A DNA stretch of 44,251 nucleotides from the NCBI RefSeq assembly GCF_019795155.1, contig NZ_JAILYN010000039.1, positions 1-44,251 on the forward strand, written 5' to 3'. Of the stretch, positions 1 to 42,477 are shown in pieces. Position numbers and translations under genes: made by a program. Numbering within the stretch: position 1 is the first letter of the stretch; each line of letters opens with the position of its first letter. Source of the DNA: Marinobacterium arenosum. GTDB taxonomy: Bacteria > Pseudomonadota > Gammaproteobacteria > Pseudomonadales > Balneatricaceae. The notes beneath the pieces are model-generated. The model saw nothing but the letters and a program-made list of their open reading frames with translations, had not been told where the DNA came from and did no database searches.

Positions 1-460
1 TCCAAAGACGGAGGTGCAGGTCTGTATCATCCATCAGATCCGCAACTCCATGAAGTACGTCGCCAGCAAGAACCAGAAGGCCTTCATGGCGGACCTCAAG
101 TGCGTCTACAAGGCGGCCACACTGAATGCGGCAGAACAGGCACTGGACGAGCTGGAGGCGAAATGGGGCCAACAGTATCCGTTGGTCATCAAATCCTGGC
201 GCAGCAAGTGGGACAACCTGTCGGTATACTTCAGCAGATCAGGCGGGCCATTTACACCACCAATGCGGTCGAGGCGGTACACCGCCAGTTCCGCAAACTG
301 ACTAAAACCAAGGGCGGAGACCAGCTTGTTGAAGCTGCTGTATGCGGGGATGCTGAAAGCCTCCGAGAAGTGGACTCATCCGGTACAAAACTGGAACCTG
401 ACGCTATCCCAGTTGACCATCCACTTCCCGGGCAGGGTGGATCAATATGTGGACCTGTAA
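1..460 (+). pseudogene. IS256-family (mutator-type) transposase, 3' remnant
   Basis: Stitched across frames, this reads as the C-terminal third of an IS256-family transposase: residues like HQIRNSMKYVASKNQKAF, then WDNLSVYF, then QIRRAIYTTNAVEAVHRQFR, then KLLYAGMLKASEKWTHPVQN, ending at a TAA at 458-460. At least two short deletions break the frame. One, near 231, removes the few residues usually found between SVYF and QIRRA; the other, near 320, lies between the TKTKGG and SLLKLL motifs. The N terminus lies outside the window. It cannot make an active transposase. It marks the left edge of the AT-rich island that follows. Confidence 0.88.
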
Positions 461-675
461 TTTACACTGACACAGAACTATGAACACCCTCCCCTGTGGT
501 TTAAATTCCATACCAAAAAATTGGTGTCTTAACCTTCAACGATGTCATATCCCATTGTTCAAGCCATTTGCTCCATTTCATATTTAGTGCCAACTATTCC
601 CGGAACGATTGTTAACGAACATTTCTCTACTATTGGATGGATTTACTGGCTTTCTATTCTGAAAAGCATCATCTA
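461..675. other. Intergenic, transposon end and island edge
   Basis: There is no convincing ORF. The first 30 bases after the transposase stop probably carry the decayed IS256 inverted repeat. Base composition then turns AT-rich, as in the island genes. I see no clear intrinsic terminator for the leftward operon that ends at 676. Confidence 0.4.
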
Positions 676-2697
676 CTACGGCTGAATCCCTGATATAGAC
701 TTAAGCCCTTTTAGGATAAGGTGTAAACACTCATCGACAAACGGTGAAGTCATTAAATGTAAATACTCTGACTTACTCAGACCAGACCTTTCAGCGAGAT
801 CTGAGTAATTTACAGACGAAAGCATACTGAATATTTCTGAGTAGTCGGCATTGTTACCATATGCTTTGGCAATTTCTTGTAATTCTGAGTAATAAGCTGT
901 ATGCATTCCCTGCCACTCTTCTGTCAATTGAAGAGGCTGTTCTTTACTCATAATGATTTTGGTAATATCTCCGACTACTCCTCCTGCACCTCCGAGGAGA
1001 TAGATCGGCTTTTCATATTCTAAAGCAATCATTACTTCTTCAAGAACACCAGGCATCTTTCCCTTAAAATTTGTTAACTTTCCTCCAGCACAGACTCTCG
1101 CATCTGACCCTGAAATAGAACGATAGCGCATTTCTGTTAAGCTTCTTGACCAAACATAAAGGTTTTCCGCACAGTTTGGAGGTAAGAATTTTGTGTTATC
1201 CAGCCCTTCTATAACATCTTCAGGGGGACTGTGCTGATGTGTTTTCATGACATGTCGATATTTAGCCCTCCAAGCTACTATTTCAGGATCTGAAATATAT
1301 TGCGGCCACGCTAAGTGGTTTTGAACTGGAGGAATATCGTTTTTTAAGCGGTCTTGTAAAACCATAGCTTCATCAAGGATAAACTCCGTAAAACCACCCT
1401 CTCTTAAGTCGCCGCCATACAGAAGAATAGCAGAGCGTGAAAGTAAGTTTCGTGCAACTTCCTGCGCCAAAAGTTTAAGAATACTGGGGTGTTGATGGTG
1501 CTTTTGAAAACCATCTGACTCAAAGTCAGATATTGAGATACCGACATTTAAATTTTTGAGCGATTCATTTTCTAATGAAGACCATAATGGTGTAAAAGCA
1601 TTAAAATCAAGTTGTTGATGCCAGTCTGCTTCATCGGGATAAATAGGTGGATCAGGATAGCAAGCCTTGTTAACACCAGCTTTTTTCCACTCTAAAACCT
1701 GTCTAATTTCAGGTGGCCGGGAAGTAATTGCACAATCCTTAGGTATCCGACCTTGATCTCTGAAGGACTCTAAAGTTTTAAAAGCATAGTTGTGCCTAAT
1801 AGTTTCAAGTAATGCTTCTGAAAGAATTTTAAGGATTTCATCCTTAGATAAACCCTGACTAACGTCAACGCGTATACGAGGAACATTAGATGCAGCAGGA
1901 AAGCCCCTATCTTCGTAGTTTTCCAAGGAATTAATGACTATTATGGGGCGCTGATTTTGTTTGGCACATAGAATTTCCCTCTGACACCAGTAACGAGATG
2001 AATATGCATCAGTTTCGATAACGATTAGAGTCGAGTTAGATATGTGCTTCTCAATTTCATCGTGAAAAGCAAAGCCAGGTGAGATTTCAGTAGAATCGAA
2101 GAATCGATTCATATTCGTATTATCTATAAATGACTTAATATTTTCTGAAATTACTACACCAGTATTTCCTGCCTTTGCATGACTTAGGAACAAGTTGATT
2201 GATGAGGCCTTTCCAGGTGCGTGTCCTTCAATGCTAGAGAAACCCTGTCTATGTATTTCATGAGCTAAATGAATTAGCGATAGTTGAACCCGTTGGGGCT
2301 CTGGCCAATCGTATACTCGAATGCAATTCAAAGAAGCAAGAGGTCCACCATGGCTTAAGCCAGATGTATCTAACGCAACTGGAACAAGACAGTGCGCTTC
2401 ACCTGATTCAATTTTATTGATATAGGCTTCCATTTGTGGCCTACCAATAGTGTTCTTACTTGTAAAAATAAAAGTAATATTTTTTTTAGCGACAGGTTTC
2501 GGTATACTTTCTGGTGTTTCTGCTTTGCTTTTAGAGCTGTAATAAAATATTGGAATATTCAGCCCACGAGAAAAAGGTCTGTCTATTTTTTTTACGAATG
2601 AGTTACGTATAAAATCGAGAATAGGTAGAACTTCATCATTATCTGATGGGTGCCATACGAAATTTAGAGCAAGTGGCGTTTGATAATTAGCTGTCAT
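676..2697 (-). CDS. TIR-SLOG protein, predicted NAD-cleaving or nucleotide-signalling effector
   Basis: A 673-residue cytosolic protein and the last gene of the island operon. Residues 165-300 form a TIR domain: the strand SSINLFLSHAK opens it, FFDSTEISPG follows, and the YWCQRE segment places the expected catalytic glutamate at E241. Residues about 380-580 look like a SLOG-type Rossmann domain, with NVGISISDF, AILLYGGDLREGGFTEFI, a GGK near 538-540 and PIYLLGGAGGVVGD. Residues 10-150 hold another alpha/beta region that may be a degenerate TIR-like fold (NFVWHPSDND near the start, ITFIFTS at 74-80). Bacterial TIR domains can hydrolyse NAD or make cyclic ADP-ribose isomers, and SLOG domains bind such nucleotides in the Thoeris effector ThsA. 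Whether one protein here both makes and senses a signal is inference. It follows Nmad2 after a 62-base gap. Confidence 0.82.
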   Translation of the reverse strand: MTANYQTPLALNFVWHPSDNDEVLPILDFIRNSFVKKIDRPFSRGLNIPIFYYSSKSKAETPESIPKPVAKKNITFIFTSKNTIGRPQMEAYINKIESGEAHCLVPVALDTSGLSHGGPLASLNCIRVYDWPEPQRVQLSLIHLAHEIHRQGFSSIEGHAPGKASSINLFLSHAKAGNTGVVISENIKSFIDNTNMNRFFDSTEISPGFAFHDEIEKHISNSTLIVIETDAYSSRYWCQREILCAKQNQRPIIVINSLENYEDRGFPAASNVPRIRVDVSQGLSKDEILKILSEALLETIRHNYAFKTLESFRDQGRIPKDCAITSRPPEIRQVLEWKKAGVNKACYPDPPIYPDEADWHQQLDFNAFTPLWSSLENESLKNLNVGISISDFESDGFQKHHQHPSILKLLAQEVARNLLSRSAILLYGGDLREGGFTEFILDEAMVLQDRLKNDIPPVQNHLAWPQYISDPEIVAWRAKYRHVMKTHQHSPPEDVIEGLDNTKFLPPNCAENLYVWSRSLTEMRYRSISGSDARVCAGGKLTNFKGKMPGVLEEVMIALEYEKPIYLLGGAGGVVGDITKIIMSKEQPLQLTEEWQGMHTAYYSELQEIAKAYGNNADYSEIFSMLSSVNYSDLAERSGLSKSEYLHLMTSPFVDECLHLILKGLKSISGIQP

Positions 2698-2759
2698 AAA
2701 TTTTATGGCTCCATAGCCTCTTCACAAATAAGATAGATAGCTTTTATAAAAAAGCAATC

Positions 2760-3425
2760 TTAAGTTATTTTACCTGTTTCTTGATTAACACGCTTATGTG
2801 AATCAATAAAATGAAAAGGGTCCCCTATCACTGTATTTCTATAGTTCTTAAACTCAGACGTAATTTTACTTATTAGTGCTTCACCATTACCAAATGGTAC
2901 AAGATATGTTTTTTTATAATCCCTAATCCTTCCGTAACCTATTGATTCAAGATCTATTGGTATAGCTTTATCGCCAAAATAAAAGAAAAAGTCTGATATT
3001 AAGACATTTTCTGTAGATCCCGTATCTCTATCAACATTTACATTGTTCATACTCCCATCGACATTACTATGATGGGAATCCTCTTGGATCCAGTTTCCGT
3101 CTATATCTTTATGGTAAATATTATCACCTAGAAGTTTTACTTGACTTCCATTGCGGCAAGGCCTTTTCAATATATACCTTTGATCTTCCCAGTACTCTTG
3201 AAAAGTTAGAACTTCTGTAACTTTCATGATAAATATACATTTTCTTTTAATCGGCTTGAGATTTGCTCCAGCAATACCGATTACCCAATCGCCAACTTTT
3301 GCCTTCTTGCGAATTCTAGGTTTACAAGTTGCTAGTGTACAAATTCCATGAAAAGGGTTTGGAGCGAACCCAAAGTCTCGAGAAATAGGATATGTATAAA
3401 GGGTTGACCCTGATTCAATCAACAT
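2760..3425 (-). CDS. Nmad2-family protein (nucleotide modification associated domain 2)
   Basis: A 221-residue protein that matches my memory of the Nmad2 family along most of its length: LYTYPISRDFGFAPNPF near the start, then GICTLATCKPRIR, KVGDWVIGIAG, a LTFQEYW segment, and GDNIYH followed by WIQEDSHHS. Nmad families were defined computationally by their linkage to DNA-base modification enzymes and conflict systems; the biochemical activity is not established. Its ATG lies inside the end of the upstream TIR gene (7-base overlap), so the two are probably translationally coupled. The conserved His/Asp/Ser-rich core argues for an enzyme or nucleotide-binding role, but I cannot name the reaction. 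Composition is AT-rich like its neighbours. Confidence 0.75.
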   Translation of the reverse strand: MLIESGSTLYTYPISRDFGFAPNPFHGICTLATCKPRIRKKAKVGDWVIGIAGANLKPIKRKCIFIMKVTEVLTFQEYWEDQRYILKRPCRNGSQVKLLGDNIYHKDIDGNWIQEDSHHSNVDGSMNNVNVDRDTGSTENVLISDFFFYFGDKAIPIDLESIGYGRIRDYKKTYLVPFGNGEALISKITSEFKNYRNTVIGDPFHFIDSHKRVNQETGKIT

Positions 3426-3907
3426 ACAACATTTCTCCCATCTATTTTTGGCATTGGTGAGCCCGTTGAATCTTGAAACTCACTGCCACCATCTAAAGCT
3501 CCAATGACTGAGTCAGCTTTCCAACCAACAATTGATGTTGCATATTTTTTTAAATTTTCTGGAATTTCAACTTGATCCTTTAGACCATTTTCATATACAC
3601 CTATTATCGGCTTGCCTAATTGATGCGCGGTTTTTATTTCCCAATCAACCCACCGTCTGCTATGTGTTTCTTTGCCAATCACTACTATAACTTGGCTTGC
3701 CCAACGCATCTTCATTTTGAGAAGTCTAGCTATCGTTCTATCACTTACTTTATTCTTATCAAGTCTACTTTGGTTTTCAGGTTTTACACGTATTGAACTA
3801 TTTCTGAATTGATAGCCTTTTCCTGAAACCATTTTGGTTAGGCCATCAACACTTGCATCATCTTTATGATGATGACTTACGAATACATTTCTTATTTTTT
3901 TTGTCAT
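3419..3907 (-). CDS. TIR-like protein (DUF1863/MTH538, ThsB-like)
   Basis: A 162-residue single-domain protein. It opens with IRNVFVSHHHKDD, the typical first strand of the DUF1863 branch of TIR domains, to which the Thoeris sensor ThsB belongs. The segment SQVIVVIGKETHSRRWVDWE supplies the second signature strand and a candidate catalytic glutamate at E90, followed by KTAHQLGKPIIGVY. ThsB proteins make a cyclic ADP-ribose isomer when phage infection is sensed. No SIR2-SLOG ThsA partner lies here; the only SLOG-type protein is the TIR-SLOG gene two positions downstream. The start is the ATG at 3907, 52 bases after the thymidylate-synthase-like gene. Its end overlaps the Nmad2 gene. Confidence 0.8.
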   Translation of the reverse strand: MTKKIRNVFVSHHHKDDASVDGLTKMVSGKGYQFRNSSIRVKPENQSRLDKNKVSDRTIARLLKMKMRWASQVIVVIGKETHSRRWVDWEIKTAHQLGKPIIGVYENGLKDQVEIPENLKKYATSIVGWKADSVIGALDGGSEFQDSTGSPMPKIDGRNVVC

Positions 3908-3959
3908 TTATGCTAAATCCCTTTATTTTTGGTTTAAATATTTCGAAGGTCATTAAGCC

Positions 3960-4973
3960 TTAATAGCTTGGCAAAGTGACTCTTTTCTCCCATTGTTCCC
4001 ATGCATGTACCAAGCACTCATTAGTGCATTTCGATATTGCATCAATACTATGTTCTGTCCACTGTCTTCTCCTCGCACTATCCGCGGCAACAACTAACAG
4101 CATATTGTAATAGCCTTCAGGCAATTTATTAGTTTCCAATAAAGAGGAAAACTCTTCCCGCCCCAAATCTGATGCGCGTAGTCGTTCCATTATCTCCTCA
4201 ATGAGCTGAAAAGCTTTCTGCGTCACTTCTTTTGATAGAGCTAAACTATCCGTATTGATTAAGGGCTTGGTTTGATCCGAAATTTGGTATTTTTCTAAAT
4301 CATCTAGATAAGCATGCAAGCTATTTGACATCTGGTAATATGAACCAACTTCCAGACCCAGCCAGCCTGCTAAGATTTCCTGTAAGCTTGTAAACTGAAC
4401 AAAGTTATGTGGAGTGCCCAGAAACAAGTCGTTACTCCGCATAATCTGAGTCCACTCAAGCCTGCCATTTCGGATATTTAACATTGAGCATATATTACAA
4501 GGTATATCCTTCGACGCTGGCGTCGCGTTTTCAGCTGGGAGATCTATCTTACCATCCCAAATTTGGAGCACAACTTGACGAGTATCAGGGTTTTTAGATA
4601 GTACCTGATAAGCTCTTTCTATCTGATCAATACCTATGTTGCGTCTCAAACGGTAACCATATGCACCATGATATTCACTGTCTTCACCACAAAATTTTGG
4701 TAGTACTGGATTCCAGAAATTTATGAAATCAGAATCATTCCTACCCTGCATAATCCACACAACTTCCGCGATAGCAAAAGCTGGATTAAGAGCTGGAATA
4801 CGAGAGTTAATCCAACGTTGACGTGGTTCTAGGATATGTAGATTTGAATGCAGAATTTCAGTCACAGGACCAAGCCTGCTTTTTTGTGAACATCCCTTAA
4901 AGCTATTTAACAGTTCTATTGCGGCCAATCGCCAAACTTCATCTGCTGTGTTGCTTTCAAAAAAGGCTGTCAC
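3960..4973 (-). CDS. Thymidylate-synthase-family pyrimidine C5 modifying enzyme
   Basis: A 337-residue ThyA-fold protein. The nucleophile sits in KDIPCNICSML (C159). The phosphate/substrate motif is MRSNDLFLGTPHN (R179, S180, D182, N190) and the HxY motif is SLHAYLDDL (H220, Y222). The Asn at 190 corresponds to the residue that selects uracil in thymidylate synthases; dCMP hydroxymethylases carry Asp there, so a dUMP-type substrate is more likely. The protein is longer and more divergent than a housekeeping ThyA (about 264 residues). Phage relatives either methylate dUMP or hydroxymethylate it to 5-hmdUMP, and the sequence alone does not tell which. Its start overlaps the upstream gene by 17 bases. 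The next-door aGPT-PPlase2 family gene favours a base-hypermodification role. Confidence 0.78.
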   Translation of the reverse strand: MTAFFESNTADEVWRLAAIELLNSFKGCSQKSRLGPVTEILHSNLHILEPRQRWINSRIPALNPAFAIAEVVWIMQGRNDSDFINFWNPVLPKFCGEDSEYHGAYGYRLRRNIGIDQIERAYQVLSKNPDTRQVVLQIWDGKIDLPAENATPASKDIPCNICSMLNIRNGRLEWTQIMRSNDLFLGTPHNFVQFTSLQEILAGWLGLEVGSYYQMSNSLHAYLDDLEKYQISDQTKPLINTDSLALSKEVTQKAFQLIEEIMERLRASDLGREEFSSLLETNKLPEGYYNMLLVVAADSARRRQWTEHSIDAISKCTNECLVHAWEQWEKRVTLPSY

Positions 4974-5964
4974 AATAGTGCTCCTTTATATTATCTACAG
5001 AATCATTGATGCCCCATTTTGGAGGAAACCAGTATTTTATAACTTCTCGGTTAGGCCTGAAAACCTGTTTAATTCGTTTCCTACCATCAAGACTACCGAC
5101 TTCGGGATGGAACACCCTTGCATATTTATCAACCTCACAAAAAAGGTTTTGGATATCAATCAAATGAAGAGGACGCCCCCATAGCTTCTTAAAACTCAAA
5201 TTACGAGCTTCCAAAAATTCATCCTGACGTTCTGTAACATATCTAATAATATCGCTTGCTGACGCATCACCAGTACTTTTAAAGCATTTCTGTATCCCAC
5301 GCAGAGCACCAGGACCCGGCATTACAAAGTCATTTTCTGAAAAATTTATTAATTCACTGTAATTAAGGTCAATGGCATACTGATAAGCTAAAAAGTCCCC
5401 AAAGCTTGGTTCGGATTTAAGCATATTAAAAACATCCTCAAGCGAAGATGCATCAGAAACTCGAGAAGGTAGTCGTTCACTCATCATCTTTTCTATTAAA
5501 CGAAGATGATTTTGGTGTTTTTTCTCATAACCGAAAGCTGATCGCCCAGATGCCATTATATAAGCAGCAGAATAAATAGCACATTTATTTTTCAAAGCGT
5601 TCGAGAGAATATCATTATAACGATCAAAGCTATATTCGCGCCATGATATCCCACCAAGCTGTCTATTAAGCAAATCCCAAGTTTCTATTTTATTAAACAG
5701 TTTAAACAAGATAATTCGAAAGAATGTTTCTTCAAATGAACTATCACCTGAATATATTACGTTTCGAATCAAGTACTGACTAACACGGTCGGAAGCTCTA
5801 TAGGCGTTAGTAAATTTGTGCTTAGCAAGAATAGGATCGTCGATCCACTTTTCTTCATTTGGACTTGTAATCCTCATAAAGAATACATCTTGACGTTTTA
5901 CCGCAAAGTCCCAGAATGTATCAAATACTTCAGTTGGCTTTATCTTCTGATCTAGCATTATCAT
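4957..5964 (-). CDS. 5-hmdU DNA kinase-type helical protein (aGPT-PPlase2 family)
   Basis: A 335-residue mostly helical protein. It resembles the clade 2 alpha-glutamyl/putrescinyl-thymine pyrophosphorylase family, later linked to 5-hydroxymethyl-dU DNA kinases of hypermodifying phages. Supporting features are a long helical N-terminal half with an FFRIILFKLFNKIETW stretch, then FGDFLAYQYAIDLNYSEL, and the HhH-like turn MPGPGALRGIQKCF (216-224 for its core). I see no P-loop of the GxxxxGKS/T type, so the separate nucleotide-kinase domain found in some phage proteins is missing. It may act on DNA or nucleotides made by the thymidylate-synthase-like neighbour. Its start overlaps the preceding gene by 35 bases, suggesting coupling. 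Confidence 0.7.
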   Translation of the reverse strand: MIMLDQKIKPTEVFDTFWDFAVKRQDVFFMRITSPNEEKWIDDPILAKHKFTNAYRASDRVSQYLIRNVIYSGDSSFEETFFRIILFKLFNKIETWDLLNRQLGGISWREYSFDRYNDILSNALKNKCAIYSAAYIMASGRSAFGYEKKHQNHLRLIEKMMSERLPSRVSDASSLEDVFNMLKSEPSFGDFLAYQYAIDLNYSELINFSENDFVMPGPGALRGIQKCFKSTGDASASDIIRYVTERQDEFLEARNLSFKKLWGRPLHLIDIQNLFCEVDKYARVFHPEVGSLDGRKRIKQVFRPNREVIKYWFPPKWGINDSVDNIKEHYCDSLF

Positions 5965-6703
5965 TATCTTTTTTAATATCGACTTGCTCGGTTACAGACT
6001 TGTCAGAAAAACCGTTTAATACTTTATCTTTCAACACAATCATACCAGCAGAGAATAAAAAACCCGCTAAGGAACCGATAAGCACAGAATATTTAAAAAC
6101 TTTCTTATCAAGCTTTTCAACTTTATCGTTTATATCTTTATCGATCTCAGCAATTCTCTCTGACAAACTATGTGCAGATTGAATTTCACCGCTAATCCCA
6201 TTTATTAAATCAGAATTAATTGACTCTAGAGGTTCGCTATTTTTCTTTCTTTCGGTCACGCGATCCAAATCAGCAAACCACATTAGAAATAGATCATCAC
6301 CACTCTTGATGTGCAAAGGCTTTGGCCCAGCATTAAAAACCGAAAAAATCAATCTGCCTTGAAATCCCGGATCTACGTGGAAGCCAGATACATTTATCAG
6401 TCCTCGAAATTTCAGTTTTGACTTCATCGAGATGAAAGCCATTGCATCATCAGGCATCAAAACTGATTCCTTAGTAAGTAGGAAACCAAATTGGCCTGCA
6501 GGTATAGCTATGGGATCACCTTTTTCCAATTTTACTGCTGTATGTCTAGATGGGTTCGGCACTTTGTGATCGGGTGTTATATATGCTTCTCCACCTACAG
6601 TTAATGTATATGCAGAACAGTCAATCTTATCTCTCACAAAGTCGCTACCAAAAACCTCTGGCAACCGTTCTTCTAATCTTTCTCCACTCCAAAAAGCCAT
6701 CAT
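5930..6703 (-). CDS. Membrane-anchored dUTPase/dCTP-deaminase-fold protein
   Basis: A 257-residue protein and the first gene of the island operon. Residues 20-150 have the trimeric dUTPase/Dcd jelly-roll signatures: FVRDKIDCSAYTLTVGGE, IPAGQFGFLLTKE, FISMKSKLKFRGLINVSGF and HVDPGFQGRLIFSVFNAG. Asp111 matches the conserved Asp of both families. The position of the Dcd catalytic Glu is Ser121, so deamination is doubtful and a dUTPase-like or binding role fits better. Residues 175-203 are charged and probably coiled coil. Residues 204-224 (YSVLIGSLAGFLFSAGMIVL) form one transmembrane helix, followed by a charged tail; a cytosolic catalytic head is expected. Two adjacent ATGs follow GAGGGA on the minus strand, and the second (6700) has the better spacing. 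Confidence 0.72.
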   Translation of the reverse strand: MMAFWSGERLEERLPEVFGSDFVRDKIDCSAYTLTVGGEAYITPDHKVPNPSRHTAVKLEKGDPIAIPAGQFGFLLTKESVLMPDDAMAFISMKSKLKFRGLINVSGFHVDPGFQGRLIFSVFNAGPKPLHIKSGDDLFLMWFADLDRVTERKKNSEPLESINSDLINGISGEIQSAHSLSERIAEIDKDINDKVEKLDKKVFKYSVLIGSLAGFLFSAGMIVLKDKVLNGFSDKSVTEQVDIKKDNDNARSEDKAN

Positions 6704-6892: not shown

Positions 6893-7555
6893 TTAGCCCA
6901 GGTGTTCATCTTCGGTCAACTGTCCGAGGATTTTTCTCATCGATTCTCCCCTCAGCTGCAACCGGTGGGCGTTGTGCATCCGCCGGTCCTGGATGGCGTC
7001 CGCCAGGGTGTTGTCGCCGATGCTGGCGTACCACTGATCGGTCGGCAGCTGGCTGATCACCAGCGTCGAGGGCTGGCCGTGGTGGTCGTCCATAATCTCC
7101 ATCAAGTCATTGCGGTGGGCCGGTTTCAGCGGCTCCAGTCCCCCAGTCGTCGATCATCAGCAACCGAACCTTTGCCAGGTATTTGAGCAGCTTGTGGTAG
7201 CTGCCATCGGCCTTGGCCTGGGTCAGCTCCAGCAGCAGGCGGGCGAGACGGTAGTAGCAGACACTGTAGCCCCTCAGGCAGGCGCTGTGCCCCAGCGCGC
7301 AGCCGAGCTAGGTCTTGCCTCTGCCGCAGGGCCCGGTGATCAGCAAGTTCTAAGCCCGGTCGATCCAGTCGCCCTGCGCCAGCTGGACAACCCGGGCCTG
7401 GCTAACGTTGCGCGGATGCTGGTAGTCGATGTCCTGTACCGTGGCGGCGAGCTTGAAGTGGGCCTAGCGGATCAGGCATTCGTACTTGCGATGCTCCCGG
7501 CTAGTTTTTTATGATCGACCAACAGTCCGAGCCGCTCGATGAACGGTAGGGCCTC
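6893..7555 (-). pseudogene. istB: istB, IS21-family helper ATPase remnant
   Basis: Read on the minus strand across frames, this is a decayed IstB: FIERLGLLVD near the start, ATVQDIDYQHPRN, a degenerate Walker A ITGPCGRGKT, CYYRLARLLLELTQAKADGS, VRLLMIDD, and the well-kept C terminus (LKPAHRNDLMEIMDDHHGQ, then TLVISQLPTDQWYASIGD). In-frame stops near 7466 and 7349 and a frameshift near 7140 disrupt it. No istA is present. IstB normally assists the IstA transposase, so this copy is dead. With the repeats at 6818-6860 it forms the right edge of the AT-rich island. Confidence 0.88.
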
Positions 7556-7704
7556 ATATCCGATTCTTGTTCATCGGCTCACGGTTTACGCTCCACGCTT
7601 CCTCCCCACGGTTGGTCGCCCTTCCGCAGTTGCGCTTCACTTCGTTCGCTGTGGCCAGCTTACGGGAGGACTTTCACCTCCAGGAGTGCGCCCGTGCCGG
7701 GCGC
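7556..7704 (-). mobile_element. Group II intron, 5' fragment (domain I remnant)
   Basis: On the minus strand this starts with a GCGCCCGG...CCGGGCGC-type hairpin directly after the poly-T of the terminator at 7705-7731. It continues with GGAGGTGAAAGTCCTCCC and a GCGAACGAAGTGAAGCGC segment, which I recognise as the 5' part of bacterial group II introns. Insertion just behind an intrinsic terminator is the known habit of class C introns. The fragment is cut off by the istB remnant; no reverse-transcriptase gene and no 3' domains are present. The family call is from memory of such sequences, not from a search. Confidence 0.6.
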
Positions 7705-34884: not shown

Positions 34885-37401
34885 TCAGCTTGGCAAGAAT
34901 TCGCGTCCCCAACCTTCTCCGGCAATGCCTCGGCTGATCATGGATTCGATTTCATCCGAACTGTAGCCGATGCTCTCCAGAATCAGGCGCGTAGAGTTGC
35001 CGAAGCGCTCGGTTTGCGGCAGCGCCAGGATCGCCGCTTCCTTTGGTCGAATCGAGTAGTGATCGATCAGCGTTACCCGGTGGCCACTGGGGTGATCGTT
35101 GTAGATCGAGAAGGCATAGCTGCCGCGATCGATCCCCACGGTACCATCGGCATCACGGCTATATTCGCCTCTAAGCTGTTCGATTCCCAGCGGCTCGGCA
35201 GCGGCAAAGTCCGCTTCATGCAGCACCTCGACCCAATACGCCGAAGGCGCAGCTTTTAACGCCTCGGTCAGGAAGGCGCCGATATCCGTTGCTTCGCTGA
35301 TACCGCTTAATCCTTCCACCGCTTCCAGATCAATCAGTTCAGACGGATCGGAATCGAGGTACAGCCAGCTGTCGCTGGTCCGGTAGAAGTGCGACAGCGC
35401 ATGGTTACCCAGCACCTCACGGCCGGAAGCTTCATCGAACGGTGCCCGCCCCTCGTAATCAAAGGCAAACTTCACCTGGGCCAGATTGGTGATCGCGGAC
35501 AGTGAGGTTCTGGACCGTGTCGCCTCGCCAGTTTTCAGCTTGTGATAGATCGAGACCGCCATCCCCAGCCCCGCGGCGAACCCGCAGTTCACATCCAGCG
35601 TGCCCAGGTGGGCATGCTCTTCCGGAGTGTCCGGACCGCCGAAACGGCTCATGATGCCGCTGTTGGCCTGGATGATATCGTCGTAGCCGATATAGCTGGT
35701 CTTCGGCCCGGGGCGCGGCCCACCCAGGCAGTCGAGACGGCAGAACAGCACTCCCGGATTGATCGCCTGCAGACTGTCGTGGTCAAGCCCCAGCGGTTTC
35801 ATCTGCCGCTCCGGTGCGTTAATCACCACCAGGTCGACCGAGCGGATCAGACGGTTAAGCGCTTCACGCCCCTCGTCGGTGGTGATATCCACCAGCGCAC
35901 TCTTCTTACCGATATTGGTCTGGAAGGTGAACAGGGTACCGATCAGCGGATCATACAGCGGTGTTACCGGATCGAGCTTGATCACCTCTGCGCCAAAGCG
36001 GCCCAGGAAAGCAGCTGAATGAGGGCCGGCAATCACGTTGGTCAAGTCCAGAACGCGCAAGCCATCGAGCCAGCCCTTACGGCTGACCGGTTTGATATCG
36101 ACGCCGGTTGGCCGAGTTAGCTGTTCCTGCTCCGCAACCGCAGTCAGCTCCGACAACGCTTCGTCAAAGCTGACGTTTTTGCGCGGGCGCGGTGTCAGCA
36201 TCTGCTCGGCACAGCTCTCCAGCCAGGCAATTGGCCCCGGCTGTTTCATCCGGCCATATTCCGGGTCGTCCACTTCGATGATCAGACCGGCGGCATTGGT
36301 ATGCTCATCGTTCACCCACTCCCGGGTGGTACGGTGCGGTGCCCCCGGAATCTGACCTTCGCCGAAGATAACGCCCCACTCGGCCGAGGTTTTGGTCAGG
36401 AACACCCGCTTCATCTTGGCGGAGATGATATCGGCCCACTTTTTCGGCAGCGGGTAAACGCCGATCGAGGTTTCGCCATCCCACTCCGCGATCGGCTGAT
36501 GAAGATCACTCACTTCCGGCAGGCCTTCTGCCTTCAGCTCTTCGTAGATGCCCAGCGCTTGCAGGCAGCGACGGGTGTGGTTGCGATGGGATGGGCAGAC
36601 TACGTAGAAATAGCGGCCGTCGGCGCACTCGTAAGTGCGATAGAACGGGTCCAGATATTCTTGCAGATCCTCGTAGCTGACATCCATCGGGATGTTATGA
36701 GCCTTGCGCCGGGCGATCTCATGTTCGCGCATGGTCAGATAGCGCTCCGGCATGTTCTCGATCACCACCGAGTTGTAGGAGAGCCCTTCCATCAGCGCCG
36801 CGGCAATGGGCACTTCGATAGTGTCGCCGCGGCCGGAATTCTCCCGCGCCACCAGTGCCATCACGACGGAGCTGGCCGCCAGTGTTGTGGCATAAGCGGA
36901 GCCCAGCGGCATCGGTGAGAAGCTGGGGTTCAGCCCCATCAGCACACGGTTGAAGCCCATGTCGGTGAACGCGCCCGAGGTGGCGGCGACGATCGCTTCG
37001 GTTGCTTTCCACTCCCGACGCAGCTGGTCATTGCTGGCAAAGCCCGGCAGCGACAGGGTGATCAGTTCGGGACGCTCTGCACGCAGCTGCTCAAAATCGA
37101 TGCCCAGCTTTTTCATCTTGCCGGGGCGGAAGCTTTCGATCACCACGTCGGCCTGCGCAATCAGGGCACGGGCCTGGTGTAGACCTGCCTCTGTTTTCAG
37201 ATCCAGTCGCAGACAGCTTTTATTGCGGTTAAGGATGGCATTTGCCGGGTGATCCCACTGGGGCCCCCGTGGCGGATCGACATGGATCACGGTTGCCCCC
37301 AGATCGGCCAGCACCATGGCTACCGCAGGGCCTGCGATCTGCTGGCCAAAATCAACCACGCGGACACCAGCCAAAGGCAACGCTGTATTGTTGTTTTTCA
37401 T
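34885..37401 (-). CDS. dddD: DddD, CoA-transferase/DMSP lyase
   Basis: An 838-residue fusion of two type III CoA-transferase (CaiB/BaiF) domains, the length and layout of Marinomonas DddD. It starts the breakdown of dimethylsulfoniopropionate, releasing DMS and a 3-hydroxypropionate-level CoA product. Domain 1 covers about 8-400 (LAGVRVVDFGQQIAGPAVAM; VVIESFRPGKMKKLGIDFEQ). Domain 2 covers about 445-838 (GLRVLDLTNVIAGPHSAAFL). The catalytic Asp of the family is in HLGTLDVNCGFAAGLGMAVS (D603); domain 1 has MPLGSAYATTLAAS in its place, so only domain 2 is catalytic, as known for DddD. AGGA lies upstream of the ATG. It is transcribed away from dddR, with the rest of the ddd genes rightward. Confidence 0.93.
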   Translation of the reverse strand: MKNNNTALPLAGVRVVDFGQQIAGPAVAMVLADLGATVIHVDPPRGPQWDHPANAILNRNKSCLRLDLKTEAGLHQARALIAQADVVIESFRPGKMKKLGIDFEQLRAERPELITLSLPGFASNDQLRREWKATEAIVAATSGAFTDMGFNRVLMGLNPSFSPMPLGSAYATTLAASSVVMALVARENSGRGDTIEVPIAAALMEGLSYNSVVIENMPERYLTMREHEIARRKAHNIPMDVSYEDLQEYLDPFYRTYECADGRYFYVVCPSHRNHTRRCLQALGIYEELKAEGLPEVSDLHQPIAEWDGETSIGVYPLPKKWADIISAKMKRVFLTKTSAEWGVIFGEGQIPGAPHRTTREWVNDEHTNAAGLIIEVDDPEYGRMKQPGPIAWLESCAEQMLTPRPRKNVSFDEALSELTAVAEQEQLTRPTGVDIKPVSRKGWLDGLRVLDLTNVIAGPHSAAFLGRFGAEVIKLDPVTPLYDPLIGTLFTFQTNIGKKSALVDITTDEGREALNRLIRSVDLVVINAPERQMKPLGLDHDSLQAINPGVLFCRLDCLGGPRPGPKTSYIGYDDIIQANSGIMSRFGGPDTPEEHAHLGTLDVNCGFAAGLGMAVSIYHKLKTGEATRSRTSLSAITNLAQVKFAFDYEGRAPFDEASGREVLGNHALSHFYRTSDSWLYLDSDPSELIDLEAVEGLSGISEATDIGAFLTEALKAAPSAYWVEVLHEADFAAAEPLGIEQLRGEYSRDADGTVGIDRGSYAFSIYNDHPSGHRVTLIDHYSIRPKEAAILALPQTERFGNSTRLILESIGYSSDEIESMISRGIAGEGWGREFLPS

Positions 37402-37761
37402 CTCAATCTATCCTATTCGGTCAATACCCACCGATACCGGTTCGGCTGGGTGGGTCAGGTGTTGTTTCGTATCGCTGTAACTGGATCGTTTTTCCCACTG
37501 ACGATGGACGCCAGGATCAACCGCCTTACTGGTAGCACCGGGCCAGCTGGGGATTCAGGCTATGCACGGGCTTCAGGATTGATTTAACGCCGCCAAGAAC
37601 AAGGTGCAGCTGTTAATCGACAGAGCGATACTAGGTTTAAAGAAAATGGGGAACCAGCAATAAAAAACCACCCAAAGCCATAAATTAATTTATACAAAAA
37701 CAAAAACCGAGATCACATATAAAAATATTTATTGAATCAGCTCATTTTTCTTATGACCAAA
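37402..37761. promoter_or_regulatory. dddD: dddD upstream region
   Basis: No gene is supported. The part next to dddD should hold its promoter and a LysR-type (T-N11-A) site for DddR, but I cannot pin one down. The far part (from about 37620) is AT-rich. Confidence 0.35.
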
Positions 37762-37799
37762 TAAAAACCGGTGACCGACTTAAAATCAGGCCACCGGCT
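37762..37799 (-). terminator. Intrinsic terminator of dddR
   Basis: On the minus strand GCCGGTGGCC...GGTCACCGG is followed by TTTTTATTT, about 45 bases past the dddR stop. Confidence 0.75.
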
Positions 37800-37844
37800 T
37801 ATAACTAAAGATGCTTATCTTTATCTAAAGAAATTATAAATGGT

Positions 37845-38756
37845 TTAGGCGTCAGGCTGGGAGGCGGACTGTGCAGCCTCCTCCAACAGCCAACTGCGGA
37901 AGGCATCGGCGTGAGGGTGTTTCAATTGCTGGGCCGGGTAGACCAGATAAAACGCCTCTTCGGTAGCCACCCGCTGCTCAAACGGCGCCACCAGCCGGCC
38001 CGACTCGATCATGTCATGGACCAGACTGCTGCGGCCCAGCGCCAGGCCCTCGCCGAGCACCGCCATCTCCAGCGCGGTGACCAGGGTATCGAACTGAAAT
38101 CCCTGGCTGATCGGGACGTTGTCATAACCGGTCTGGTTAAGCCAATAGCCCCATCCCTCCTCATAGCCGACCACATGCAACAGCGTATGGTGAACCAGAT
38201 CTTGCGGGCTATTCAACGGCTTATCCTGTTGCAGGTAAGCCGGACTGCAGACCGGAAACAGCTCGTCGCGGGTCAGCCGATCCGATTGCATCGACTCCCA
38301 GCCCCCCTTGCCATAACGGATCTCCATATCGGTTTCCACCGAGCGTTCACGCTCATCAACCCAGATATTGCTGGTGATCCGCAGGTTGATATCTGGATAC
38401 TGGGCACGAAAGCGGTGCAACCGGCGGGCCAGCCAGGTCATAAAGAACACCATGTTAACCCGTACGGTGAGCAGTTCCGTCCGCCGCTGGCCGAAGACCT
38501 CTTCGGTGGCAACGGTTAGACGCTCGATCGACTCCCGTACGGCCGGCAGGTAGGCGGCGCCGGCGTCGGTGAGCTCCAGCCCTCGCGGCAGTCGCTTGAA
38601 TAGCGCTGCGCCCAGCTGGGTCTCCAGCCCTTTCACCTGCTGGCTGATAGCCGCCTGGGTGAGGTTCAGCTCAGTAGCAGCATGTGTGAAACTCAGGTGT
38701 CGGGCAGACGCCTCAAAGGACCTGAGCCAGTTCAACGGGGGCAGCTTCTTCTTCAT
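37845..38756 (-). CDS. dddR: DddR, LysR-family regulator of DMSP catabolism
   Basis: A 303-residue LysR regulator of the GcvA-like branch: LPPLNWLRSFEASARHLSFT, then LNLTQAAISQQVKGLETQLG in the helix-turn-helix and LFKRLPRGLELTDAG. The effector domain contains VRVNMVFFMTWLARRLHRF and FPVCSPAYLQ. In Marinomonas a LysR regulator within the ddd cluster induces dddT-dddB-dddC in response to DMSP; the same position here supports the name. The MITE copy B begins about 40 bases upstream of its start codon. Confidence 0.82.
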   Translation of the reverse strand: MKKKLPPLNWLRSFEASARHLSFTHAATELNLTQAAISQQVKGLETQLGAALFKRLPRGLELTDAGAAYLPAVRESIERLTVATEEVFGQRRTELLTVRVNMVFFMTWLARRLHRFRAQYPDINLRITSNIWVDERERSVETDMEIRYGKGGWESMQSDRLTRDELFPVCSPAYLQQDKPLNSPQDLVHHTLLHVVGYEEGWGYWLNQTGYDNVPISQGFQFDTLVTALEMAVLGEGLALGRSSLVHDMIESGRLVAPFEQRVATEEAFYLVYPAQQLKHPHADAFRSWLLEEAAQSASQPDA

Positions 38757-38797
38757 CGTTCAGCTTCTTCTTACGCTTATCCATATCTTTTTATTAG

Positions 38798-39089
38798 GGA
38801 ACCTGTGAACAAGTCCCTTATGTTCTCTGCGGGCTCTAGAACGGCCAGATGCACGAAAGGCAGCGCAGCGGAATGACACGTCCTTTCCAAGCTGCCTGAC
38901 AAAGCAGATGGCCGTTCTAGAACCCGCCCTCCGGGGCTGTCGGTGGTCCGGCACCCGGGCGATCAGAGCTCTGCGTTAACGATTTACGTCCGGCCGGCGC
39001 TCCGGGGACAACCAGTACGCCTGTAATCGTTGCCTTGATCTCTGATCGCTCCGACAGCCAGAGGCCCAAGGGACTTATTCACAGGTTCC
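38798..39089 (-). mobile_element. MITE-like element, copy B (292 bp), between dddR and dddT
   Basis: Ends GGAACCTGTGAACAAGTCCC and GGGACTTATTCACAGGTTCC are flanked on both sides by TTAG (38794-38797 and 39090-39093), a target duplication of the IS5-type four-base kind. The interior is the reverse complement of copy A at 20245-20507 with few changes, plus about 30 extra bases (CCGGGCGGCCGG-like stretches near 38950 and 38995). It holds the same two long hairpins and no ORF of substance. Confidence 0.9.
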
Positions 39090-39093
39090 TTAG

Positions 39094-39491
39094 AGCCGGT
39101 AGCTATCGCTGTCGAGTGGGCGAGCCGTGCCGATCAGAGCGCCGCCGAGCTACCAGGCCGTTGTCCGGCGGATCCATTATTCCTCATAACCGACTTATAG
39201 ACATATAAATTATTTTATACCTTTGGGGCATTTTTTATTGCTTTTCATCTTTTTGCCGCTTGATAACAATCGACCTCGTATCGTTTTTCTCCACCGCATA
39301 TCGGTGAAACCGCATTTAGAGTTTGGTCTCTCAATACCCTTTAACCACAAACAAAACAGAATCAAAGCCATGAATAATAAATACAAGAACCTGTTGATTC
39401 AGACGGACAATCACTACCGCTACCAACGGTATGATCGCTTATCGCTTACTCCTGATGTCGCCCATCCAACTCATTCTGGGAGGGGCGCCTC
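39094..39491 (+). promoter_or_regulatory. dddT: dddT upstream region
   Basis: Mostly AT-rich (39180-39260 especially), with the presumed dddT promoter. A 41-codon frame from the ATG at 39370 (MNNKYKNLLIQTD...) ends in a TGA that overlaps the dddT ATG by four bases. Its ribosome site is poor, and I leave it as a possible leader peptide only. Confidence 0.35.
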
Positions 39492-41117
39492 ATGAACAGC
39501 AGAAAACTGACCTGCGACACCGGCCTGTTCGCCGGCGTCAACCCGGTGATGGTTATAGGCTCGGCAGTATTGGTGATCGCATTCGTGCTCTTTACCGTCA
39601 CCGATCCCGAATACGCCAATACTCTTTATGGCGCGGCGAAAGACTTTATAGCGTCCGACCTGGCCTGGTACTACATCGGTCTGATGAGCTTCTTCCTGTT
39701 CCTGTCGGTCTATCTGGTGTTCAGCCGTTACGGCGCGATCCGATTGGGGAAAGACGACGAGAAACCGGAGTTCAGCTTCTTCTCCTGGTTCTCAATGCTG
39801 TTCGGTGCCGGCATCGGTATCGGTATCCTGTTCTGGAGTATTGCCGAGCCGATCTACCACTTCCAAAGCAACCCGTTCATCGCTGAAGGGCAAGCGATGT
39901 CGGTTGAAGCGGCCCAGGTGGCGATGCGCATCAGTATCTTCCACTGGGGTCTGCATGGCTGGGGCCTGTTTGCCATCTGCGGTATGGCACTGGCCTATTT
40001 CAGCTATCGCAAAGGACTGCCGCTCTCCGTCCGTTCCGGCCTGTATCCGATCTTCGGTGAGCGGATCTACGGCCCGATCGGCCATGCGGCGGATCTGTTG
40101 GCGGTATTCGGTACCGTGTTCGGTATCGCCACCTCGCTAGGCCTCGGCGCTCAGCAGATGAATGCCGGCCTCAACTACCTGCTGGGGTTCGAGGTCTCGA
40201 CCACCAATCAGATCGTGCTGATCGTGATGGTCTCGATCATCGCCACCTTCTCGGTGCTGAGTGGGGTGCATAAGGGAATTCGTATTCTCAGCGAGCTGAA
40301 TATGCAGCTGACTGTGGTGATCCTGGCGTTCTTCGTGATCTTCGGCCCGACCGCTTATCTGCTGGGCGCGTTCTTCACCAACGTGGGTGATTACCTGCTG
40401 AATGTTGTTCCACTCGGCTTCTGGGTTGATCCGGACCCGAAAAGCCAATGGCAGGGTTGGTGGACCATCTTCTACTGGGGCTGGTGGATCGCCTGGGGGC
40501 CGTTTGTCGGGATGTTTATCGCCCGCATCTCCAAAGGCCGTACCATCCGCGAATTCGTGCTGGGCGTGCTGTTGGCGCCGACACTGCTGGGCGCATTCTG
40601 GATCACCATCTTCGGTAACACCGCGATGTTTATCGAGCTGTTCGGCGGTGGCGGCATCACTGAAGCGGTCAATAAGGATATCACCCTGGCGCTGTTCCAG
40701 ACCATGGAGCTGATGGATCTGGGGACTGCCCTGACCATGGTGGGCGCCACAATCTGCGTGATTATGCTGGTCACCTACTTCGTCACCTCGGCGGACTCCG
40801 CCACCTTGGTGATCTGTACCCTGCTCTCCATGGGCAATGAGCATCCGCCGGCACGTTTCCGGGTGTTCTGGGGGCTGGCGGTAGGTGCCGTGGCGGCGGT
40901 ATTGCTGCTGGCCGGCGGACTCAAGGCATTGCAGACCGCATCGATTGTTGCCGCCCTGCCCTACTCCGTGGTCGCCATCCTGACCACCTGGGGGCTGATC
41001 AAATCGCTACGCGCCGAGGCACTGCCGAGTGCCGCCAGTGCCGCCGCCCGAGTCGCGCAGATGGAGCGGGACGATAGCGATGTGCAGCAGCGCTCTTCGG
41101 TTACCAGTTCTTTGTAA
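39492..41117 (+). CDS. dddT: DddT, BCCT-family DMSP/betaine transporter
   Basis: A 541-residue secondary transporter of the betaine/carnitine/choline family with 12 predicted helices. Typical parts are DLAWYYIGLMSFFLFLSVYL, FSWFSMLFGAGIGIGILFWS, SIFHWGLHGWGLFAICGMAL and the Trp-rich substrate-site stretch WWTIFYWGWWIAWGPFVGMF. GGGAGGGG lies shortly before the ATG. In ddd clusters this gene imports DMSP. It leads a rightward run with dddB (about 140 bases on) and dddC. Confidence 0.92.
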   Translation: MNSRKLTCDTGLFAGVNPVMVIGSAVLVIAFVLFTVTDPEYANTLYGAAKDFIASDLAWYYIGLMSFFLFLSVYLVFSRYGAIRLGKDDEKPEFSFFSWFSMLFGAGIGIGILFWSIAEPIYHFQSNPFIAEGQAMSVEAAQVAMRISIFHWGLHGWGLFAICGMALAYFSYRKGLPLSVRSGLYPIFGERIYGPIGHAADLLAVFGTVFGIATSLGLGAQQMNAGLNYLLGFEVSTTNQIVLIVMVSIIATFSVLSGVHKGIRILSELNMQLTVVILAFFVIFGPTAYLLGAFFTNVGDYLLNVVPLGFWVDPDPKSQWQGWWTIFYWGWWIAWGPFVGMFIARISKGRTIREFVLGVLLAPTLLGAFWITIFGNTAMFIELFGGGGITEAVNKDITLALFQTMELMDLGTALTMVGATICVIMLVTYFVTSADSATLVICTLLSMGNEHPPARFRVFWGLAVGAVAAVLLLAGGLKALQTASIVAALPYSVVAILTTWGLIKSLRAEALPSAASAAARVAQMERDDSDVQQRSSVTSSL

Positions 41118-41259
41118 CGCAGCTTTATGAGGAATGCACGGTCACTTGGAGGGGACCGTGCCACCACTCCCAATCATGAACGCTATTACGCCAACAAAAC
41201 CCTGGTGGGGGCAACTGTGGCCGCTATTCCAGAGTTTTTTGATTAAGGAAATTCGAGCT

Positions 41260-42420
41260 ATGTCTACTCAAGTAATTCTGCCGCGCATCATGCAAGTGGG
41301 GGCCGGAGCCAGTCAGGAAATCCCCTCCGTATTGGAAAGTCTTAACTGCAAACGTCCGCTGATCGTCACCGATAAGGTGATGGTGGAACTGGGCTACGTG
41401 GGTCAGATTGAGCAAACACTGGCCAATCACATGGTCTTCTGCGAGGTGTTCGATAATACCGTGCCCGAGCCGACGGTTGGCTCTATTCAGGCCGGTGTCG
41501 AGAAGGCGCGCGACGGCGATTACGACTGCATTATCGCGGTTGGCGGCGGCAGCCCGATCGACAGCGCCAAGGCGATTGCGATCCTGGCCAAGTTTGGCGG
41601 CGAGATGCGGGATTATAAATTCCCCCGCGTGGTACTCGAGCAAGGACTGCCGGTAATCGCCGTGCCGACCACCGCTGGCACCGGTTCGGAGGTGACCCGC
41701 TTCACCATCATCACCGACGAAGCAAACGACGAGAAGATGCTCTGCGTCGGCATCGGCTTTATGCCGGTGGCTGCTCTGGTGGATTACAAGCTGACGCTGA
41801 GTCTGCCGGCGCGTATTACCGCCGATACCGGTATCGATGCCCTGACCCACGCGATCGAAGCCTACGTCAGCAAAAAAGCCAACCCATACAGCGACAGCCA
41901 GGCATTGGCGGCGATGAGTCTGCTCGGCCCGAATTTGCGCAAGGTTTACCACCACGGTTCCGATGCGGATGCACGAGAAGCGATGATGCTGGGCTCTACG
42001 CTGGCCGGTGTTGCGTTCTCCGCCGCTTCCGTCGCCCTGGTCCACGGCATGAGCCGGCCGATCGGCGCGTTCTTCCATGTGCCGCACGGCCTGTCTAACG
42101 CAATGCTGTTACCCAGCGTCACCGCGTTCTCCATTCCGGAGGCGCCGGAACGTTACGCCGATTGTGCGCGTGCCATGGGCGTTGCCAGCGAGCTGGATAG
42201 CACAGAGGTCGCCAACGGCAAACTGCTGGACGAATTGAAAGCGCTGAATGAAGAACTGTCGGTACCGACACCGGAGCAGTTCGGCATCGACCGCAACCAG
42301 TTCTTCGAGCTGCGCCAGACCATGGCGGAGCAGGCACTGGCATCCGGTTCACCGGGCAACAACCCGAAAGTGCCGAGCATTGAAGAGATGATGACGATCT
42401 ATACCGGCCTATGGGACTGA
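41260..42420 (+). CDS. dddB: DddB, iron-containing alcohol dehydrogenase
   Basis: A 386-residue group III alcohol dehydrogenase. Family motifs are IIAVGGGSPIDSAKAIAIL (NAD site), VPTTAGTGSEVTRFTII, ADTGIDALTHAIEAYVSKKA with the metal-binding His, and LVHGMSRPIGAFFHVPHGLS with two more His. I start at the ATG at 41260 (MSTQVILP), with AAGGAA upstream; the open frame back to 41134 adds a run without homology. In the DMSP pathway it oxidises 3-hydroxypropionate to malonate semialdehyde. Confidence 0.9.
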   Translation: MSTQVILPRIMQVGAGASQEIPSVLESLNCKRPLIVTDKVMVELGYVGQIEQTLANHMVFCEVFDNTVPEPTVGSIQAGVEKARDGDYDCIIAVGGGSPIDSAKAIAILAKFGGEMRDYKFPRVVLEQGLPVIAVPTTAGTGSEVTRFTIITDEANDEKMLCVGIGFMPVAALVDYKLTLSLPARITADTGIDALTHAIEAYVSKKANPYSDSQALAAMSLLGPNLRKVYHHGSDADAREAMMLGSTLAGVAFSAASVALVHGMSRPIGAFFHVPHGLSNAMLLPSVTAFSIPEAPERYADCARAMGVASELDSTEVANGKLLDELKALNEELSVPTPEQFGIDRNQFFELRQTMAEQALASGSPGNNPKVPSIEEMMTIYTGLWD

Positions 42421-42477
42421 CGCCGACGCTCCATATCACAGATCCAACGATTAAAAACAATTATTGAGGAAACCTTG

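What the first reader, a model, noticed from the sequence alone, without database searches (positions are those of the whole stretch)
676..6703. Six-gene island joining thymidine/uridine nucleotide enzymes to two TIR proteins
All six genes run leftward with overlaps or gaps of at most 62 bases, and all are AT-rich against a GC-rich chromosome. Seen directly: a dUTPase/Dcd-fold protein, an aGPT-PPlase2/5-hmdU-kinase-type helical protein, a thymidylate-synthase homologue, a ThsB-like TIR, Nmad2 and TIR-SLOG. Established: Nmad and aGPT-PPlase families are tied to DNA base hypermodification; TIR and SLOG are tied to NAD-derived signalling in phage defence. Inference: the uracil-nucleotide enzymes either mark self DNA or guard the nucleotide pool, and disturbance by phage releases the TIR proteins to deplete NAD or make a cyclic signal. 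I know of no described system with this exact gene set.
Basis: partly seen in the sequence, partly recalled or inferred. Interest (0 to 1): 0.93.

Follow-up and report, generated by a model that had tools for sequence, protein, structure and literature searches.

The report
TIR immune operon reading modified bases
A six-gene bacterial operon, related versions of which recur across many phyla, seems to join enzymes like those of phage DNA-base chemistry to a reader-like protein and to NAD-consuming alarm proteins, which suggests an anti-phage system that watches the state of thymine-type bases.

Summary
The set is conserved. Among the 80 best Nmad2 relatives (of 366 found) a ThsB-like TIR gene lies beside Nmad2 in 78. 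All 40 de-duplicated loci with good flanks have a nucleotide or base enzyme; 38 have an effector or membrane partner. Parts behave as exchangeable slots: HMUDK_hel (45 loci) and a UDG-like gene (26) never occur together, nor do TS (27) and MazG (45). Structure prediction recasts two genes: Nmad2 resembles YTH/EVE modified-base readers (modest score); the "5-hmdU kinase" gene has no P-loop and resembles a phage 5-PmdU glycinyltransferase and HhH DNA glycosylases. Best explanation: a Thoeris-like NAD-signalling anti-phage system in which Nmad2 reads a thymine- or uracil-type base or nucleotide handled by the operon's enzymes and gates the TIR; TIR-SLOG is the effector. Trigger and sign are unknown. 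"No described system" is only partly right: an E. coli relative (TS, dNMPk, HMUDK_hel, TIR, Nmad2) probably is a phage-blocking system of the 2026 DefensePredictor paper, which gives no mechanism for it in the sections read.

The parts
5930..6703 (-). DCD-like: dCTP deaminase/dUTPase-fold protein with C-terminal transmembrane-like helix (residues 206-224)
   Evidence: Pfam DCD 1.1e-13; best solved relative 8y1w 5.6e-11; TM-like segment in 16 of 17 aligned rows incl. window; the residue aligned to the Glu of solved dCTP deaminase 1xs1 (catalytic role recalled) is A/S/G in 17 of 17 rows, Asp of HVDP kept in 15 of 17
4957..5964 (-). HMUDK_hel protein: HhH-glycosylase-like fold, PUGT-like base enzyme, no P-loop
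3960..4973 (-). Divergent thymidylate-synthase-family enzyme (probable 5-substitution of dUMP)
   Evidence: Pfam 1.2e-22, phrog_5131 2.3e-63; best solved relative CMP 5-hydroxymethylase 5b6d 2.1e-24 (name MilA recalled); Cys159 in 32 of 32 and Asn190 in 31 of 32 rows; host has its own ThyA elsewhere, 4.5e-116
3419..3907 (-). ThsB-like TIR, candidate NAD-derived signal synthase; core with Nmad2
   Evidence: PADLOC ThsB model PDLC00418 5.2e-61 (residues 3-162); WxxxE Glu90 in 80 of 80 aligned rows; adjacent to Nmad2 in 78 of 80 loci
2760..3425 (-). Nmad2: YTH/EVE-like candidate modified-base reader
676..2697 (-). TIR-SLOG effector candidate (TIR about 170-260, SLOG LD_cluster2 380-645)
   Evidence: Pfam; Glu241 in 10 of 10 fused rows incl. 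window; fused TIR-SLOG is on the same strand and next to TIR-Nmad2, at most one TIR gene between, in 9 of 9 loci
14..483 (+). Remnant of a Mutator-family transposase at the contig edge, left flank
   Evidence: Pfam Transposase_mut 1.8e-15 for 14-301; the rest read by eye in another frame
6900..7560 (-). Frameshifted remnant, IstB-like (IS21), right flank; ends approximate
   Evidence: six-frame reading; family label recalled, not searched

Best explanation
The operon is a mobile, probably anti-phage, Thoeris-like NAD-signalling system whose sensing arm is a modified-base reader. Shown by sequence and prediction: a core pair of ThsB-like TIR and a YTH/EVE-like Nmad2; a base slot filled by an HhH-glycosylase-like HMUDK_hel protein (elsewhere a UDG); a nucleotide slot filled by a TS-family enzyme (elsewhere MazG), with a membrane-anchored Dcd/dUTPase-like helper; and an effector slot filled by TIR-SLOG. 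Inferred: the TS-family enzyme and the HMUDK_hel protein make, expose or release a particular 5-substituted or uracil-type pyrimidine in nucleotides or DNA; Nmad2 binds it; a change in that ligand during infection switches on the TIR, which makes an ADP-ribose-type signal; the SLOG domain of TIR-SLOG binds the signal and its TIR destroys NAD+, stopping the infected cell. Whether appearance or loss of the ligand is the trigger is not known.
For: TIR beside Nmad2 in 78 of 80 loci. 40 of 40 de-duplicated loci with 4 kb flanks carry a nucleotide/base enzyme and 38 of 40 an effector or membrane partner. HMUDK_hel and UDG: 45 and 26 loci, 0 together; TS and MazG: 27 and 45, 0 together; de-duplicated n=58 also 0 and 0; the labels changed repeatedly on the Nmad2 tree, at least 8 (HMUDK_hel) and 7 (UDG) changes forced by supported branches. 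Nmad2 fold like YTH readers; HMUDK_hel fold like PUGT and HhH glycosylases. Phage Epa43 has P-loop kinase, HMUDK_hel and TS genes in a row, so the window pair resembles a phage thymine-modification pair. HMUDK_hel relatives are in 437 of 50,697 phage records, Nmad2 in 0. In 6 of 80 loci a SIR2-STALD protein is near; the one tested is ThsA (PDLC00407 5.1e-190). An E. coli operon TS-dNMPk-HMUDK_hel-TIR-Nmad2 (16 of 5,426 genomes) fits the domain list of a validated phage-blocking system (PMC13092281, Fig. 3C legend).
Confidence: 0.6

Rival explanations
1. Guarded self-ligand (Panoptes-like): the operon's own enzymes constantly make a modified deoxyuridine or mark host DNA; Nmad2 bound to it holds the TIR off; phage takeover of nucleotides or host DNA removes it and fires the TIR.
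For: No locus with full flanks lacks the enzymes (0 of 40), and tailoring enzymes vary (TylF-type methyltransferase in 4 of 80 loci; radical SAM in L011 and L098), as if a defined ligand is synthesised; TS uses an ever-present host substrate (established knowledge).
Against: MazG+UDG loci (24 of 80) have no obvious maker of a modified base. No direct evidence of a constitutive product.
Confidence: 0.3
2. Excision alarm: HMUDK_hel or UDG removes modified or uracil bases from phage DNA or nucleotides, and Nmad2 senses the freed base, nucleotide or abasic site.
For: HhH-glycosylase and queuosine-salvage-enzyme (DUF2419) resemblance of HMUDK_hel and its clean exchange with UDG; antiviral glycosylases exist (PMC11078745 passages; PMC13160076 abstract).
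Against: Best structural match is a transferase (PUGT), not a glycosylase; the DUF2419 match has 6 A rmsd; TS is hard to place in this scheme.
Confidence: 0.35
3. Two neighbours, not one system: a Thoeris-like TIR plus TIR-SLOG pair beside an independent base-modification defence cassette.
For: TIR-SLOG sits near other TIR genes, with no Nmad2 found, on three plasmid stretches (L003-L005); HMUDK_hel-TS-MazG cassettes exist without TIR.
Against: TIR overlaps Nmad2 by 7 bp in the window and is adjacent in 78 of 80 loci; 40 of 40 loci with full flanks have a base or nucleotide enzyme; fused TIR-SLOG sits with TIR-Nmad2 in 9 of 9 loci.
Confidence: 0.2
4. Ordinary nucleotide-pool or plasmid maintenance genes with no role in defence.
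For: TS, dUTPase-like, MazG and kinases are metabolic families.
Against: Host has its own ThyA; TIR, SLOG, ThsA-type and patatin partners in the relatives; island composition; probable validated E. coli relative.
Confidence: 0.05

Closest known systems
DefensePredictor validated E. coli system with TS, dNMPk, 5hmdUk, NMAD (Science 2026, PMC13092281)
   Same: TS, HMUDK_hel and Nmad2 families; the E. coli operon of this make-up that I found also has the ThsB-like TIR
   Different: Window has a Dcd-like gene and a fused TIR-SLOG, no dNMP kinase; sections 5 and 7 of the paper give no mechanism for that system; its identity with the operon is inferred
Thoeris (ThsA/ThsB)
   Same: ThsB-like TIR with its conserved Glu; a SLOG-bearing effector candidate; SIR2-STALD proteins (one tested as ThsA) near 6 of 80 related loci
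   Different: Effector candidate is TIR-SLOG (LD_cluster2), not SIR2-STALD or TM-macro; Nmad2 and base enzymes added
Phage thymidine hypermodification (TS-family enzyme, 5-hmdU DNA kinase, PUGT; pathway recalled)
   Same: HMUDK_hel and TS-family genes side by side, as in phage Epa43
   Different: No P-loop 5-hmdU kinase; bacterial; tied to TIR and Nmad2
EVE/YTH (PUA-like) modified-base readers
   Same: Predicted fold of Nmad2
   Different: Partner is a TIR, not a nuclease; pocket not shown
Brig1/Brig3 antiviral glycosylases (PMC11078745, PMC13160076)
   Same: Base excision in defence; a UDG alternates with HMUDK_hel here
   Different: HMUDK_hel looks HhH-type; activity untested; coupled to signalling genes
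Panoptes (recalled; search listing only)
   Same: Possible logic of a self-made ligand that holds an effector off (a rival here)
   Different: No cyclic oligonucleotide enzyme family among the six proteins

Membership tests
Thoeris | ThsB TIR protein | tested here: met
   PADLOC PDLC00418 5.2e-61, Pfam ThsB_TIR 2.4e-22
Thoeris | ThsA effector (SIR2-SLOG/STALD or TM-macro) | tested here: not met
   No ThsA model among PADLOC hits of the six proteins; the effector candidate is TIR-SLOG LD_cluster2
Thoeris | cADPR-type signal made by TIR on infection | not testable with these tools
   biochemistry needed
DefensePredictor TS/dNMPk/5hmdUk/NMAD system | TS, HMUDK_hel and Nmad genes together | tested here: met
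   E. coli relative
DefensePredictor TS/dNMPk/5hmdUk/NMAD system | dNMP kinase gene | tested here: not met
   no dNMP or P-loop kinase family hit for any of the six window proteins
Phage thymidine hypermodification pathway | P-loop 5-hmdU DNA kinase | tested here: not met
   no P-loop family in the six proteins; phage Epa43 has a P-loop protein there (AAA_33 8.3e-07; 5-hmdU kinase model only 0.0074, below its cut-off)
Phage thymidine hypermodification pathway | PUGT/HMUDK_hel-type enzyme | tested here: met
Phage thymidine hypermodification pathway | TS-family dUMP hydroxymethylase | tested here: inconclusive
   Cys and Asn kept (roles recalled); best solved relative a CMP hydroxymethylase; product not known
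EVE/YTH-like reader | PUA-like EVE/YTH fold | tested here: met
EVE/YTH-like reader | aromatic base-binding pocket and modified-base binding | not tested
   Trp79 and Trp112 in 80 of 80 rows, Trp47 in 78 of 80, not mapped onto the pocket
Anti-phage dCTP deaminase | catalytic Glu of dCTP deaminase | tested here: not met
   Glu of solved deaminase 1xs1 aligns with Ser121 of the window; A/S/G in 17 of 17 rows. Catalytic role recalled; the two top solved hits, also deposited as dCTP deaminases, have Met there

The most novel reading that the evidence does not exclude
Bacteria have built an immune pathway in which a YTH/EVE-like reader gates a TIR enzyme: a captured phage-type thymine-modification module (TS-family enzyme plus PUGT/glycosylase-fold enzyme) makes or releases a modified pyrimidine that is itself the monitored ligand, so that infection-driven change of a DNA base or nucleotide, not a phage protein, is converted into an NAD-derived alarm. 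Base, nucleotide and effector modules are swapped around the near-invariant TIR-Nmad2 core.
Probability: 0.45. Interest if true: 0.9.

Novelty: new variant of a known kind. Interest (0 to 1): 0.74.

Why it matters
It would link two fields that are usually separate, modified-base recognition and TIR/NAD immune signalling, in one widespread modular system, and would suggest what the Nmad2 family does. The clean exchange of HMUDK_hel with UDG, and of TS with MazG, gives directly testable predictions about what the system senses. It also warns that the database name "5-hmdU kinase" may hide a glycosylase-fold enzyme.

Tried and rejected
Rejected: a P-loop kinase reading of gene 2; gene 1 as a working dCTP deaminase; the TS gene as the host's only thymidylate synthase; Nmad2 as a phage gene (0 of 50,697 phage records at E 1e-5; 9 relatives in the viral contigs by a motif scan). 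The whole-operon DNA search in E. coli genomes found nothing. Sequence profiles of Nmad2 and HMUDK_hel found no credible solved relative (best E 0.026 and 0.023). Promoter scan no better than shuffles (16 found, 19.9 expected); terminator scan 7 against 4.2. No tRNA in the window. The blast cluster first called patatin-like was mixed: proteins of 400 residues or more are patatin-type (Pfam Patatin in the three tested, L012, L034, L077; none in the shorter fragment L041), shorter ones are small proteins, with no family at cut-off in the three tested; they are counted apart. A tree of TIR proteins set the Nmad2-linked TIRs apart, but the two groups had been defined by profile score, so I do not use it.

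Literature: searches listed no paper that joins Nmad2 to a TIR gene by name; listings were capped (20 of 104, 20 of 27), and the library lacks most subscription papers. The paper looked up by DOI, which I recall as the 2015 'nucleotide-centric systems' survey and as relevant, is not held.
Full report
OBSERVATION. The six ORFs, their strand and coordinates are as stated. Adjacent genes overlap by 35, 17 and 7 bp or are separated by 52 and 62 bp. The island has GC 0.379 against 0.610 for 7001-44251, below all 313 same-size windows there (lowest 0.568). It lies between a Mutator transposase remnant at the contig edge and a frameshifted remnant that I read as IstB (label recalled). The window is contig C49 of a 4.8 Mb genome from its first base, so nothing to the left can be seen. 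The host has a separate ThyA at 4.5e-116.

IS THE SET A UNIT? A genome scan with the Nmad2 alignment found 366 relatives; the best 80 became loci. In these a ThsB-like TIR gene is directly beside Nmad2 in 78; the exceptions are L061, whose contig starts about 80 bp before Nmad2, and L086, where the TIR is three genes on. Within 8 kb: HMUDK_hel 45, MazG 45, TS 27, UDG 26, Dcd-like 14, dNMP kinase 8, thymidylate kinase 7, TylF-type methyltransferase 4. Near copies of the window set include L033 (HMUDK-TS-DCD-TIR-Nmad2), L029 (the same, its HMUDK cut by the contig edge), L030 (TMK-HMUDK-TS-TIR-Nmad2-TIRSLOG), L032 (TIR-Nmad2-TIRSLOG-HMUDK-TS) and L031, the one locus of 80 with all six families. 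Plasmids of Gloeothece, Rhodococcus, Rhizobium, Sinorhizobium, Parabacteroides and Mesorhizobium carry related sets.

SLOTS. HMUDK_hel and UDG never share a locus (45, 26, 0 of 80; Fisher 9.2e-14), nor do TS and MazG (27, 45, 0; 1.5e-14), nor TS and UDG (27, 26, 0). After removing Nmad2 copies at 75% identity (n=58) the counts are 34, 17, 0 and 19, 32, 0. The first two results hold for distances of 3 to 20 kb. Fisher tests ignore descent: on the Nmad2 tree supported branches force at least 7 changes of UDG and 8 of HMUDK_hel, and in independent pairs the partner never moves the same way, but the sign tests reach only median p 0.06 and 0.03. TS occurs with HMUDK_hel in 26 of 27 loci; UDG with MazG in 24 of 26, the other two having a Dcd-like gene. 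Of 40 de-duplicated loci with more than 4 kb on both sides, 40 have the TIR, 40 a nucleotide or base gene and 38 an effector or membrane partner. Of all 80, three (L043, L051, L055, contigs of 4 to 5 kb) show no nucleotide gene. Effector candidates over all 80: TIR-SLOG 26 (9 of them fused), SLOG3 with a TIR 21, small membrane-type protein 16, patatin 14, a second membrane protein 7, SIR2 6, none recognised 5; some loci hold two. Of the six SIR2 proteins, which share one profile, the one tested (L052) is ThsA (5.1e-190). The fused TIR-SLOG is on the same strand and next to TIR-Nmad2, with at most one TIR gene between, in 9 of 9 loci.

LIMITS OF THE SURVEY. The 80 loci are those most like the window and were found with the motif GFAPNPF, so the invariance of that motif means nothing. 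In 398 genomes of the phylum Nmad2 occurs in 6; two (own and G336) have the TIR and HMUDK_hel, four lower-scoring ones do not, and two of those sit beside Nmad3. Three further genomes have HMUDK_hel without Nmad2. TIR-less cassettes in Sinorhizobium fredii and Allocoleopsis hold genes annotated TS together with HMUDK_hel and MazG, so the TS/MazG exclusion is claimed for TIR-Nmad2 loci only. Some models were built from the loci they were then searched against.

PRIOR ART. The DefensePredictor paper (abstract in the listing; sections 5 and 7 and passages read) reports 42 cloned E. coli systems that reduce phage plating or plaque size; the Fig. 3C legend lists TS, dNMPk, 5hmdUk and NMAD. A DNA search with the Buttiauxella operon finds the arrangement TS, dNMPk, HMUDK_hel, TIR, Nmad2 in 16 of 5,426 complete E. 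coli genomes, one of them with an IS1 inside; in the one I opened (families checked) it stands beside conjugation genes and is followed by an oppositely oriented TIR/SLOG set. I infer that this is the validated system; its table was not readable. Sections 5 and 7 give no mechanism for it. The EVE-domain survey PMC7641849 does not contain Nmad, TIR or Thoeris as whole words.

MECHANISM. Shown: conservation, slots, predicted folds, conserved residues. Inferred: Nmad2 reads a thymine- or uracil-type base or nucleotide; the enzymes of the operon make, expose or release it; the TIR answers with an ADP-ribose-type signal; TIR-SLOG destroys NAD+. For dependence on the operon's own enzymes speaks that no locus with full flanks lacks them. 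The sign (appearance or loss of ligand) cannot be told. A constantly made activating ligand would be toxic, which favours a guarded ligand; the exchange with UDG favours excision. I keep both as rivals.

VERDICT. Real, conserved and probably defensive; a new variant of TIR/SLOG signalling, with a probable experimental relative already in print but no published mechanism found in my searches.

Noticed in passing
window 34885-43974: Looks like a DMSP catabolism cluster: DddD-like double CoA-transferase, BCCT transporter, iron alcohol dehydrogenase, methylmalonate-semialdehyde dehydrogenase (labels recalled from the translations, not searched).
   Followed up: no
window 7511-7625 and 44130-44201, minus strand: Two Rfam group II intron matches above the gathering score, one right beside the island's right edge.
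   Followed up: no
L118-L121 (G260, G062, G054, G162): Lower-scoring Nmad2 proteins without TIR; two of the four (L119, L120) stand beside Nmad3, one (L121) beside a ParA-like and a SIR2 protein: apparently other Nmad2 systems.
   Followed up: partly
L013 5345-12715 and L014 6521-10616: TIR-less cassettes HTH, ImmA/IrrE, TS, HMUDK_hel, MazG on plasmids of Sinorhizobium fredii and Allocoleopsis, possibly a separate defence system.
   Followed up: no
L098 6989-7489: Small membrane protein before TIR-Nmad2 matches PADLOC candidate PDC-M50A (1.3e-21), while the window TIR matches PDC-M50B (2.1e-16): the PDC-M50 candidate may be a cousin of this system.
   Followed up: partly
L068 3782-4924: The MazG protein here carries the MazG_C domain (2.2e-76), of unknown activity to me; the same cluster is found in 45 of 80 loci.
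   Followed up: no
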